From: an uncultured Anaerolineales bacterium | GTDB lineage: Bacteria > Chloroflexota > Anaerolineae > Anaerolineales > UBA11657 | Direction of reading: 5' to 3' | DNA length: 23,625 bases | NCBI GenBank assembly: GCA_913040765.1 | Contig: CAJWIA010000001.1 | Coordinates: 1-23,625, forward strand | Translations under genes and position numbers: made by a program | The notes under the pieces: model-generated | The model's database searches: none | Told to the model about the DNA's origin: nothing | What the model saw: only the letters and a program-made list of their open reading frames with translations | Shown: positions 3,202-6,811 of the stretch, in pieces | Position numbering within the stretch: position 1 is the first letter of the stretch | Layout of the letters: every line of letters begins with the position of its first letter

Positions 3202-3768
3202 TTATAAGCTTAGCGAAAGGAAATTATGTAATAGTGCTTTCCCACCTTCAGTTAGTATACTTTCTGGATGGAATTGCACGCCGTAGATTGGATATTCGCG
3301 GTGTCTCATTCCCATTAGAACACCGTCGCTTGTTCGTGCTTGCTCCTCGAGACAATCAGGTAAGGGTTCGCTAACTATCAATGAATGGTATCTTGTGGCA
3401 TTGAATGGATTAGGCAAATTTAGAAAAATGTCAGTACCACTATGGTGGACAACGGAGGTTTTACCATGCATTAGCGATGGTGCCCGCTCTATTTTTCCAT
3501 CAAAAGCTACTCCAATTGCTTGGTGCCCCAAGCATACTCCTAGAGTTGGTATTTTCTTGCCCAACTCTATAATAGCTTCCACAGATACACCGCTATCGCT
3601 TGGGTCTCCAGGACCAGGTGAAATAAGTAAGTGTGTGGGCGACAATTGATGCAACTTCTTTACAGTGATGCTGTCGTTACGAAAAACTTGTAACTCTGCA
3701 CCCATTTCACCTAGGTACTGAACTAAGTTATATGTGAAGCTATCGTAATTGTCGATGACAATTATCAT
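3202..3768 (-). CDS. trpG: Anthranilate synthase component II (glutamine amidotransferase)
   Basis: Class I glutaminase that supplies ammonia to TrpE. The 188-aa protein starts [20 protein letters not shown], typical of TrpG/PabA. The catalytic triad is visible: Cys79 in [10 protein letters not shown], then His167 and Glu169 in [15 protein letters not shown] at about residues 47-56 forms the oxyanion region. The ATG overlaps the trpE stop (ATGA), so TrpE and TrpG are translationally coupled and likely made in equal amounts. TrpG and PabA are hard to tell apart by sequence and it may serve both pathways; its place in the operon argues for tryptophan synthesis. Confidence 0.95.
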
Positions 3769-5195
3769 GTGTGGTGTCCATCCTCTGCTTGTTCCACTGC
3801 AAGTGCAATGGCTTTTACTTTGTCTAAAGTTTCCTTATATTCATTGGATGGATCAGAGTCTGCAACTATACCAGCTCCAGCCTGTGCAGTCACCCATTGA
3901 TCTTGCACATAGAGAGTGCGTAGTGCTATGCATGTGTCCATGGAACCATCAAAACCTATATAACCCACCACTCCAGCATATGGGCCACGAGGATTCTGTT
4001 CCAGAGTGGCTATGATCTGCATCGCCCTCACTTTTGGCGCTCCACTGACTGTGCCCGCTGGGAATGTAGCAGCCAGTAGATCAAATGCATCCATGTCTGC
4101 ACGCAGATCGCCCTCTACTTGGCTCACGATATGCATTACATGGCTGTAACGTTCCACCTGCATCATGTCGGTTAATTCCACAGATCCATAATTGCACACT
4201 CGACCTAAGTCATTTCTAGCTAGGTCTATCAACATAACGTGTTCTGCTCGTTCTTTTTCGTCTTCTAATAACTCAGTTGCTAAAGCAATGTCTTTCTGCT
4301 CAGTGCTTCCCCGTGGCCGTGTTCCTGCTATTGGTCTTAGAATAGCGCGATCATTTTCCATGCGTACATGAACCTCGGGTGAGGCACCAATTAGCTGAAA
4401 CGGTTTCGTGTTTAGATCACCAAAATCAAAAAAGAACATATATGGCGAAGGATTTATACGTCTTAACGTGCGATAAATGGAGAAAGGATGTGCCTTAGTT
4501 TTGTTGGTAAATTTCTGAGATAAAACTACCTGCAAGATATCACCAGCCATTATATGCTCTTTAGCTTTGAGGACCATATCCTGGAAACTTGTTTTTGTAT
4601 GAGACTGCTGACTGCTCGATTCGGATTTAAATATATGTGGGGTGTCGGGCAAAGGCATGGTAAGTTTGTGTTCGATAGCGTTGAGACGTTCATTGGCCAC
4701 CTCCTTTTCAGAGGTAGAGTTTTCCTCAGCATATGTAATCGCCAATAGTCGACCACGGGTATGGTCAAATGCCAACAACGTGTCACATAGCAAAAAAATG
4801 CCGTCGGGTAATTCGTGTAGAGGTAAATCAACATTTGGTTCGAAGTATCGAACTGCATCATAGCTTAAATATCCAACTAAACCACCTACTAAACGTGGCA
4901 AACCGGGAGGTGTTTCTTTACTGTATGGCACAAGTGCATTTCGTAATATAGAGAAAGGATCATCTGTATGGGTAGCCGTTAATTCTAGGTTTGGGCCCGA
5001 GTGAATAGCAGTAATCTGATCACGAATTACAAATGCAGTACTAGGTTGCAATCCGATGAAGGAATAACGGGCTACGTTTTCTCCACCAGTTACACTTTCT
5101 AACAAGAATGTCGGACCATTGCCAGACAACTTAAGATAAGTTGAAACTGGAGTTTCCAAATCAGCAATTATTTCGCGTGTTATCGGTTTTAGCAT
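3765..5195 (-). CDS. trpE: Anthranilate synthase component I
   Basis: Converts chorismate to anthranilate using ammonia from TrpG; it is the entry and feedback-controlled step. The 476-aa protein is slightly short for the family but complete. LLES at residues 31-34, within a conserved LLESVTGGE block, is the tryptophan-binding feedback motif, so allosteric inhibition by Trp is expected. The C-terminal chorismate-binding domain shows [40 protein letters not shown] and [15 protein letters not shown]. It is the first gene of the operon, about 110 nt downstream of a leader terminator. No good Shine-Dalgarno is seen before the ATG, where the upstream bases are ...CCTGGTTGTCAAT. Confidence 0.97.
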
Positions 5196-5305: not shown

Positions 5306-5335
5306 AAAAACCCCCACTATCAGACAACGGGGGTT
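5306..5335 (-). terminator. Intrinsic terminator of the trp leader
   Basis: Read on the minus strand, AACCCCC (5329-5335) pairs perfectly with GGGGGTT (5309-5315) across a 13-nt loop, and a run of five U follows the G tract. It stands between the leader promoter and trpE, so it must be conditional for trp to be expressed. It is the expression platform of the T-box described over this region. Confidence 0.88.
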
Positions 5336-5624
5336 CACTAGCCAGCCTCACTTATTTGCAGGTACGATCTTGTTAGAGAGTTGGAGACTCCAACTTAATG
5401 ATACCCTCAGCCTAGATAACGGTGGCGATTCCGGCTAAAGCTACTAGGATGTTACGGTGTAATCATACCGGCGTGACGGAGAGGCCACGCACATCTGTTG
5501 ACCCAGCGACTCAGAGACCCATTCAGCGCTTACATCTGGTCGGGTTTTTCAGCGATCACCCGCTCTCTGTACCATTTGTATAGCACTTACTATTTCTCTT
5601 CAGTGTCTTTTATTGTAAATTGTG
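5306..5624 (-). promoter_or_regulatory. T-box riboswitch leader, Trp specifier
   Basis: The leader has T-box hallmarks in order. AGAGAG (5563-5568) is followed by a hairpin CGGGT...GCTGAAAAACCCG, the Stem I pattern. GAA-UGG-GUCUCUGAG follows, with the apparent specifier codon UGG (Trp) at 5519-5521. Then come a GCGTGGC/GTCACGC hairpin near 5480, the conserved CCGUUAUC element near 5415-5420, a strong AGTTGGAG/CTCCAACT hairpin, and UGGC at 5341-5344 just before the terminator. UGGC can pair with the GCCA acceptor end expected for tRNA-Trp (discriminator G). T-boxes sense uncharged tRNA and stabilise an antiterminator. The usual 14-nt T-box consensus (AGGGUGGNACCGCG) is strongly diverged here, and I could not draw a convincing antiterminator 3' arm. 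Specifier, downstream gene and UGGC all agree on Trp. Confidence 0.82.
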
Positions 5625-5630
5625 GTTCTT

Positions 5631-5659
5631 TTTATACTTTAATACCTAGTAATTGTCAA
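5631..5659 (-). promoter_or_regulatory. Primary trp operon promoter (sigma70 type)
   Basis: On the minus strand TTGACA (5654-5659, perfect -35) is separated by exactly 17 nt from TATAAA (5631-5636, one mismatch from the -10 consensus). The expected start near 5624 lies just before the T-box leader. The -35 box overlaps the TGA stop codon (5656-5658) of the preceding GIY-YIG gene. Confidence 0.85.
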
Positions 5660-5931
5660 TACAAATTCTTTTGATGACTTTCAATTAAAGCTAATTTTCG
5701 AGACCGTTTCCAGCGTTTGATAGCAGCTTCGCGCTGCATAGCTGCTGATCTGGTAGGATGTTCTTCTGCAAAAACCATATCCACTGGTCTGTGCATACGA
5801 GTGTATCTTCCACCCCGCCCAGCGTTATGTTCTGATAAACGTCGCTCTAAGTTAGTGGTCCATCCTGTGTAAAGACTATCATCGCTGCAGCGTAGAATAT
5901 ACACATATACATTTTTAGGTATCTTTTGCAT
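5656..5931 (-). CDS. GIY-YIG nuclease superfamily protein, UPF0213/YhbQ type
   Basis: Small 91-aa single-domain protein of the GIY-YIG fold (YhbQ/UPF0213-like). The diagnostic residues are visible: VYI at about 10-12 (the GIY position), YTG at 21-23 (the YIG position), Arg30, the EHNAG segment, and Glu68 in REAAIK as the metal-binding position. The family is widespread; a DNA-processing or repair nuclease role has been proposed but is not settled. It begins 2 nt after the M50 protease stop, so the two are probably co-transcribed. Its stop codon lies within the trp promoter, so read-through from this gene into trp is possible. Confidence 0.9.
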   Translation of the reverse strand: MQKIPKNVYVYILRCSDDSLYTGWTTNLERRLSEHNAGRGGRYTRMHRPVDMVFAEEHPTRSAAMQREAAIKRWKRSRKLALIESHQKNLY

Positions 5932-6557: not shown

Positions 6558-6579
6558 TAGTTTTGCACTTCGTGACTGA

Positions 6580-6588
6580 ATTATATCA
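6580..6588 (-). promoter_or_regulatory. Extended -10 promoter for the M50/GIY-YIG genes
   Basis: On the minus strand TGATATAAT (6580-6588) is a TGn plus a perfect TATAAT. A start near 6573 would leave a leader of about 16 nt before the ATG at 6557. No clear -35 is visible, which is acceptable for an extended -10 promoter. Confidence 0.5.
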
Positions 6589-6597
6589 GGCATTGCT

Positions 6598-6606
6598 TGT
6601 TATAAT
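6598..6606 (+). promoter_or_regulatory. Extended -10 promoter for DUF951/glycosyltransferase genes
   Basis: TGTTATAAT (6598-6606) is a TGn motif with a perfect TATAAT. A start near 6613 gives a leader of about 10 nt before the ATG at 6623. The element lies within 12 nt of the divergent minus-strand -10 element, so the two promoters overlap. Confidence 0.55.
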
Positions 6607-6622
6607 CGACTTATACCTGATC

Positions 6623-6811
6623 ATGAAACCTAACATAGAATTAAAGCTTGACCAAAATGTGCATCTACGCAAACCGCACCCTTGCGGTGGTTACAAGTGG
6701 CAGATTGTTAGATTAGGGGCAGATATTGGATTGCGATGTCTCACTTGTCAGCGTAGAGTGTTGATGTCGCGTCGTGCATTGGCCAAACAAATCAAAAGTA
6801 TAGAGAAATGA
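6623..6811 (+). CDS. DUF951 domain-containing protein
   Basis: 62-aa small basic protein matching the DUF951 pattern: [20 protein letters not shown] then [12 protein letters not shown]. His19, Cys21, Cys39 and Cys42 could bind one zinc, but this is inferred from spacing. Molecular function is not established for the family, which I know mainly from Firmicutes and related lineages. The ATG at 6623 is chosen over an in-frame ATG at 6563, because that one would add a poorly conserved 20-residue extension across the divergent promoters. It is the first gene of a rightward unit and ends 16 nt before the glycosyltransferase gene. Confidence 0.86.

What the first reader, a model, noticed from the sequence alone, without database searches (positions are those of the whole stretch)
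5306..5624. T-box with a UGG specifier controls the trp operon
A promoter, an AGAGAG Stem I motif, a GAA-UGG specifier context, a CCGUUAUC element, a UGGC acceptor-pairing tetranucleotide and a terminator are all present in the right order before trpE. The specifier (Trp), the UGGC (fits a G discriminator) and the biosynthetic genes agree. The core 14-nt T-box consensus is strongly diverged and I could not find a standard antiterminator 3' arm, so this may be a divergent T-box subtype.
Basis: partly seen in the sequence, partly recalled or inferred. Interest (0 to 1): 0.7.

Follow-up and report, generated by a model that had tools for sequence, protein, structure and literature searches.

The report
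Trp T-box with stripped-down tRNA-end sensor
The RNA leader in front of this bacterium's tryptophan genes looks like a T-box that binds uncharged tRNA-Trp, but its usual tRNA-end sensor has been lost and a much simpler second sensor, found across related bacteria, appears to do the job alone.

Summary
The T-box reading is supported. RF00230 matches the minus strand at 5612-5380 (74.3 bits, E 2.7e-16, below the 93-bit gathering score). UGG specifier, F-box, UGGC and terminator are shared by 7 of 7 family leaders, the window included. Many Trp leaders of Anaerolineae (Chloroflexota) carry one Stem I followed by two expression platforms: a non-canonical GUGANRC-UGGC element with a terminator, then a canonical GGGUGGCACC antiterminator with a second terminator. 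The window's lineage lost the second. In the first, GUGANRC pairs with the terminator's apical loop (GYNUCAC type), UGGC sits at the helix edge, and the terminator's 5' arm would be trapped in the loop. It has no ACC, no general A2 helix and no evident Stem III. Pairing and covariation support it: 121 of 149 elements form all six pairs, against 13% of loop-shuffled controls. Stand-alone first platforms also precede trpS in four genomes. Nothing was tested experimentally. A 'duplicated terminator-antiterminator' T-box class is recalled from Vitreschak 2008, whose text was not held, so this is rated a new variant of a known kind.

The parts
5631..5659 (-). promoter-like TTGACA - 17 nt - TATAAA
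   Evidence: read; TTGACA-N15-19-TATAAA in 7 of 7 family leaders; not reported by the consensus scan
5380..5612 (-). RF00230 T-box covariance match (Stem I to Stem II/F-box; its 3' end is misaligned in my judgement)
   Evidence: 74.3 bits, gathering 93, E 2.7e-16; 1.9e-16 in the own-genome search
5563..5568 (-). AGAGAG of Stem I
   Evidence: AGAGA conserved in the 7-leader alignment
5519..5524 (-). GAAUGG with UGG (Trp) specifier 5521-5519
   Evidence: GAAUGG in 6 of 7 family leaders, UGG in 7 of 7
5417..5422 (-). F-box CCGUUA
   Evidence: 7 of 7 family leaders
5361..5406 (-). stem GGGUAUC...GUACC between F-box and the antiterminator
   Evidence: fold and, by eye, compensatory changes among family leaders
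5345..5351 (-). A1-like 5' arm GUGAGGC of the proposed antiterminator
   Evidence: arm family GUGANRC in 149 elements
5341..5344 (-). UGGC, proposed pairing site for the GCCA end of uncharged tRNA-Trp, directly next to the A1-like helix
   Evidence: 7 of 7 family leaders
5319..5325 (-). A1-like 3' arm GUCUGAU, in the apical part of the terminator
   Evidence: homologous arms GYNUCAC-type in relatives
5306..5336 (-). intrinsic terminator, 13-pair stem and U run, -14.4 kcal/mol
3765..5195 (-). trpE
   Evidence: Pfam PF04715, PF00425
3202..3768 (-). trpG
   Evidence: Pfam PF00117
2145..3176 (-). trpD
   Evidence: Pfam PF00591, PF02885
1357..2148 (-). trpC
   Evidence: Pfam PF00218
723..1412 (-). 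trpF (start codon uncertain)
   Evidence: Pfam PF00697

Best explanation
A tRNA-Trp-responsive transcription-terminating T-box leader of the trpEGDCF operon whose only discriminator is a non-canonical one. Stem I reads the CCA anticodon of tRNA-Trp with its UGG specifier (inferred from the family). When tRNA-Trp is uncharged, its GCCA end pairs with UGGC (5344-5341). That would stabilise a short helix between GUGAGGC (5351-5345) and GUCUGAU (5325-5319). The terminator's 5' arm is then caught in the hairpin loop of this helix and RNA polymerase reads on. When tRNA-Trp is charged, the terminator (5336-5306) forms and the operon is off. In most related leaders this platform is followed by a canonical T-box discriminator and a second terminator, so one tRNA would have to pass two checkpoints; the window's lineage has lost the second. 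Shown by sequence: the parts, their conservation, pairing and covariation, and the loss. Inferred: tRNA binding, charging discrimination and switching.
For: RF00230 E 2.7e-16. Six relatives from the family share UGG, CCGUUA and UGGC. 149 distinct elements, one of which (L268) is probably a chance match: 121 form all 6 pairs and 28 form 5; after shuffling the central 16 nt, 13% form 6. At pair 6, located without using that pair, A faces U in 16 of 18 and G faces C or U in 129 of 131; at pair 4, three G arms face C, C and U. In a set chosen only by specifier and F-box, 30 of 107 Trp leaders show a hairpin plus U run before the canonical T-box by my reading, and 29 of the 30 have GUGRNRC followed by UGGC (28) or UGGU (1). 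Tally of 147 elements by downstream gene: TrpE 75, TrpB-like 45, TrpS 16, too little sequence 9, other 2. No canonical second copy in reach for the window, G001-G005 and four trpS leaders. G007, congener of G005, keeps both. Discriminator base G in 15 of 15 tRNA-Trp genes.
Against: The A1-like helix is weak: mean -2.0 kcal/mol against -11.8 for the terminators; in the window -2.6 against -14.4. In the window it has a G-G mismatch and two G-U pairs. In canonical T-boxes the antiterminator without Stem III did not bind tRNA appreciably (Li 2019 as told in PMC7583486 section 5.2, read), and no Stem III or G-U-closed A2 is evident here. RF00230 score is under the gathering cut-off. The 149 sequences are related and were mostly found with a pattern that demands CTGGC, so conservation counts are inflated; no tree-based covariation test was run. 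One leader (L343) has an upstream terminator without the element.
Confidence: 0.68

Rival explanations
1. An ordinary T-box whose discriminator has merely drifted: A1 = AGGC/GUCU, bulge UGGCUAGUG, A2 = AAC/GUU, i.e. the canonical plan with a longer bulge.
For: AAC-CCCC-GUU can form next to GUCU in the window; G005 shows GGC/GUC at the same place (by eye).
Against: Relatives with both platforms show that this element is the first of two and is not derived in place from the canonical copy. A2-like pairs are not general: L135 has only 7 nt between UGGC and the 3' arm. With A2 the modelled energy is worse than without (-1.0 against -2.6).
Confidence: 0.15
2. The first element senses nothing: AGGCUGG is only the 5' strand of Stem III of the canonical second discriminator, with a terminator-like hairpin in its loop.
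For: In double leaders this strand does covary with the strand before the canonical T-box: at position 5, located without using that pair, A faces U in 23 of 24 and G faces C or U in 82 of 84. GAGUG before it fits the RRRxG flank of Stem III described in PMC7583486.
Against: The element persists, with UGGC, where no second copy exists: six family genomes and four trpS leaders. For C at position 5 only 11 of 28 face G (my locator shifts there). An uncontrolled terminator would shut the operon.
Confidence: 0.1
3. A decayed, non-functional T-box remnant in the window's lineage: the canonical discriminator is deleted and the operon is served by leaky read-through.
For: The canonical copy is gone, small genome (1.6 Mb, 77% complete), weak modelled helix.
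Against: UGG, F-box, UGGC, the loop arm and terminator are kept in relatives that are only about 70-74% identical over the leader.
Confidence: 0.07

Closest known systems
Canonical transcriptional T-box riboswitch (RF00230), e.g. Bacillus subtilis tyrS/glyQS type
   Same: Stem I with AGAGAG and specifier, F-box, UGGN next to the antiterminator helix, competing terminator, amino-acid gene downstream.
   Different: Only UGGC kept of the UGGNACC bulge; no general A2; no Stem III of the RRRxG-AA kind between F-box stem and helix; antiterminator 3' arm lies in the terminator's loop and the terminator's 5' arm is trapped rather than paired.
T-boxes with duplicated terminator-antiterminator elements (Vitreschak et al. 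2008, RNA; recalled from the abstract, paper not held)
   Same: One Stem I with two terminator-antiterminator units, as in the double leaders of the relatives.
   Different: Whether that class includes a non-canonical first unit or Chloroflexota trp genes could not be checked. The window has only the first unit.
Tandem complete T-boxes of Bacillota trp operons (PMC12452182, passages seen)
   Same: Two tRNA-Trp checkpoints before trpE.
   Different: There each unit has its own Stem I; the passage seen says tandemly arranged T-boxes were observed only in Bacillota. Here one Stem I serves two platforms in Chloroflexota.
Dehalococcoides trpE T-box (PMC2494555, passages seen)
   Same: Chloroflexota Trp T-box upstream of trpE.
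   Different: No first platform was found in the small-genome leaders outside the class that I fetched (1 of 66 loci L344-L409 has it); that some of them are Dehalococcoides is my guess from genome size.

Membership tests
T-box riboswitch (RF00230) | covariance match | tested here: met
   74.3 bits, E 2.7e-16; below the curated gathering score of 93, which is not met
T-box riboswitch (RF00230) | Stem I specifier that fits the regulated gene | tested here: met
   UGG before trpE; 7 of 7 family leaders
T-box riboswitch (RF00230) | F-box / Stem II | tested here: met
   CCGUUA aligned by Infernal, 7 of 7
T-box riboswitch (RF00230) | UGGN complementary to the tRNA end, at the edge of antiterminator helix A1 | tested here: met
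   UGGC directly after the GUGAGGC arm; tRNA-Trp discriminator G in 15 of 15 relatives' genes; own tRNA-Trp not found
T-box riboswitch (RF00230) | antiterminator exclusive with terminator | tested here: inconclusive
   pairing and covariation and topology favour it; modelled helix is weak
canonical T-box discriminator | 14-nt T-box sequence with UGGNACC bulge | tested here: not met
   no TGG.ACC between the element and trpE in the window or in five of six family relatives
canonical T-box discriminator | helix A2 | tested here: not met
   possible 3-pair AAC/GUU in the window but no gain in energy; no room in L135
canonical T-box discriminator | RRRxG - Stem III - AA before A1 | tested here: inconclusive
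   AAGUG runs straight into the A1-like arm; whether the GGUAUC...GUACC stem stands in for Stem III is unknown
T-box with duplicated terminator-antiterminator (Vitreschak 2008) | two terminator-antiterminator units on one Stem I | tested here: not met
   window has one unit; 136 of 147 relatives' elements do have a canonical second unit
T-box riboswitch (RF00230) | read-through on uncharged, termination on charged tRNA | not testable with these tools
   needs in vitro transcription

The most novel reading that the evidence does not exclude
A second, structurally different kind of T-box discriminator exists: a bare A1-like hairpin with UGGC at the loop edge, without Stem III, ACC or A2, that senses tRNA-Trp charging and antiterminates by trapping the terminator's 5' arm in its loop. 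It normally works as the first of two serial checkpoints on one tRNA and has become the sole sensor in the window's lineage and before trpS in others. Because its 5' strand is also Stem III of the second discriminator, the tRNA end would be handed from one site to the next.
Probability: 0.45. Interest if true: 0.82.

Novelty: new variant of a known kind. Interest (0 to 1): 0.62.

Why it matters
The literature I read describes the T-box discriminator as essentially identical in all known T-boxes, with Stem III indispensable for binding the tRNA end (PMC7583486, passages and section 5.2). A natural sensor lacking Stem III, ACC and A2, used alone on trpE and trpS, would make it directly testable which parts are needed to tell charged from uncharged tRNA. 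The double leaders suggest serial checking of one tRNA at two terminators. Rfam and scanners keyed to the canonical 3' end would see only the second platform, or score stand-alone leaders below cut-off (48.6 to 77.4 bits for five of them besides the window).

Tried and rejected
Rejected: Infernal's own placement of the antiterminator, because GUUGGAGUCUCCAAC is not kept in G005 and G007. Rejected: rnk_leader, NsiR1, SNORD95, bxd_5 and anti-hemB matches (E 0.6 to 9.7). Rejected: leader-peptide attenuation; I saw no run of Trp codons in the leader (read by eye, no systematic search). A first multiple alignment was useless because loci were not turned to one strand; one search replaced it. A first pairing test without fixing the place of the hairpin loop gave weak blind counts (pair 6: A facing U 8 of 18); restricting the 3' arm to within 5 nt of the loop centre gave the counts reported. 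Both are told because the restriction was chosen after seeing the first result. One search dropped 16 candidates (15 without specifier and canonical T-box, 1 without U run); further dropped L247 by hand and L258 for lack of a hairpin, and kept L268, probably a chance match. In one search my automatic terminator finder flagged 41 of 107 leaders; in some it took a wrong U run (L304, L308, L309, L310, L336) or the second terminator; the count of 30 is my reading, and part of the print was cut from view. The pattern scan of the order (82 of 400 genomes) had reversed-pattern control hits in 6 of 400 genomes.

Own tRNA-Trp: not found with two patterns. Literature: searches were the searches; none of the listings I saw described this element. 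Papers not held: 10.1261/rna.819308, PMC2271356, PMC2650889. Three of the 41 python/genome aids planned were not used: no covariance model was built, no tree was made, no protein structure predicted.

Full report
What is there. On the minus strand between the GIY-YIG gene (5656-5931) and trpE lies a leader with a promoter, T-box Stem I, UGG specifier, F-box, UGGC and a 13-pair terminator. RF00230 scores 74.3 bits (E 2.7e-16), below the gathering score. The own genome has two other strong T-box matches, on C25 and C68, both with canonical GGGUGGUACCGCGG ends; two further matches are weak (E 0.02 and 0.48). All 61 genomes of the nearest relatives searched have T-box matches at E <= 0.001, 33 of 61 above the cut-off; the same search rang in 5 of 14 control genomes. 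The organism belongs to the Anaerolineales (Chloroflexota), judged by the names of records holding the same leaders.

Conservation in the family. Seven leaders (the window and six relatives, G001-G005 and G007) align over the whole leader, with 97 to 70% identity to the window. All 7 have UGG (6 as GAAUGG, one as AAAUGG), CCGUUA, CUGGC and TTGACA-N-TATAAA. Six of 7 lack any TGG.ACC downstream of the element; G007 has it. G005, of the same genus as G007, keeps the U run and TTTAAG after the first terminator but not the T-box, which reads as a deletion of the second platform.

Two platforms in the order. Of 19 trpE leaders with specifier and F-box fetched through TrpE, 16 carry GTGA-N-R-C-TGGC (one as ATGAGGC) followed by a terminator; three (L041, L042, L055) have only a single, canonical or near-canonical, end. 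A pattern for F-box, element and U run hits 82 of 400 genomes of the order; the reversed pattern hits 6. The scan of GTDB genomes gave 115 stretches, including Caldilineae and Ardenticatenia records with both platforms, and a number of chance matches without specifier in other phyla. In a set chosen only by specifier and F-box (177 of 400 genomes of the phylum have a match), I fetched 107 distinct leaders. The element with a U run is in 28 of the 41 leaders L303-L343, which come from the order and class, and in 1 of the 66 leaders L344-L409, which come from the rest of the phylum. L343 has an upstream terminator without the element. Among the 30 T-box loci L006-L035 taken by best score regardless of specificity, the 5 with the element (L007, L009, L013, L030, L033) all have the Trp specifier.

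Anatomy of the first platform. Across 149 distinct elements the arm is GUGAGGC, GUGACGC, GUGAAGC, GUGAGAC and rarer forms, then UGGC (150 of 151 before the last two drops, one UGGU; CTGG[CT] was required by the search). The terminator's apical part holds GCAUCAC, GUCUGAC, GUAUCAC, GUUUCAC, GUCCCAC and the like. These pair with the arm with a mismatch usually at position 5. 121 of 149 form six pairs and 28 form five; with the central 16 nt shuffled, 13% form six and 59% five. With the locator blind to the tested pair, standard pairs are 120, 145, 130, 137, 139 and 147 of 149 for pairs 7, 6, 4, 3, 2 and 1. A at position 6 faces U in 16 of 18 and C in 1; G faces C in 100 and U in 29 of 131. A6 arms occur in at least four families of the order (f1, f6, f12, f15) and in a Caldilineaceae record. 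GUGGGGC arms face GUCCCAC in two and GCGCUCAC in one. An earlier, looser locator gave weaker blind counts (see Tried and rejected). Because the 3' arm abuts the terminator's 3' strand, helix and terminator should not coexist: this is a topological argument, not a measurement.

Dual use in double leaders. Positions 4-7 of the same arm also pair with the strand before the canonical T-box, as its Stem III would: standard pairs in 115, 116, 111 and 89 of 136 leaders for pairs 4, 5, 6 and 7; A5 faces U in 23 of 24, G5 faces C or U in 82 of 84, C5 faces G in only 11 of 28. GAGUG before it fits the RRRxG flank reported for Stem III (PMC7583486). So tRNA bound at the first UGGC and Stem III of the second discriminator exclude each other; a hand-over is my inference.

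Stand-alone first platforms. No canonical copy was found in reach for 11 of 147 elements: five distinct f1 elements (window, G001, G002, G003, G005; G004 shares the window's element sequence), four leaders L073, L117, L119, L124, the probable chance match L268 and L295, where the contig ends. The four leaders match RF00230 at 48.6 to 73.9 bits and stand before trpS: three by NCBIfam TIGR00233 above cut-off, L119 by tblastn at 78% identity. By downstream gene 147 elements fall to TrpE 75, TrpB-like 45, TrpS 16, too short 9, other 2.

tRNA. Fifteen of 15 ARAGORN-confirmed tRNA-Trp genes of relatives have G as discriminator base, including G001, G002 and G007, fitting UGGC; UGGU would wobble, and TBDB reports U at this place in 46% of Trp T-boxes (PMC7778990, passage seen).

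Weak points. The modelled helix is weak; related sequences inflate counts; no tree-based test; no experiment; the key earlier paper on duplicated units was not readable. The description of canonical discriminators rests on PMC7583486 (passages and section 5.2 read).

Noticed in passing
L073, L117, L119, L124, directly after the leader terminator: A short gene with the motif YCAV-TGA-HY or similar precedes trpS; it looks like a SelW/Rdx-type selenoprotein gene with an in-frame TGA (family recalled; TGA left as a stop). A Trp T-box would thus control a selenoprotein-trpS operon.
   Followed up: partly
L055 (G008), L024, L034: A third genus of the same family has a single canonical T-box with UGGU before trpE and no first platform.
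   Followed up: no
L041 (G031): Trp leader with GGGUGGCAGAACGAAG instead of UGGCACC before trpE: another diverged discriminator.
   Followed up: no
L343 (G749): Trp leader with an upstream terminator but UUGGCUCCCUGGU instead of the GUGANRC-UGGC element.
   Followed up: partly
L001 and L002 (own genome C25, C68): Canonical T-boxes; downstream reading frames look like pheS and leuS by eye, not tested.
   Followed up: no
window 6563-6808: DUF951 protein gene divergent from the M50 peptidase gene.
   Followed up: no
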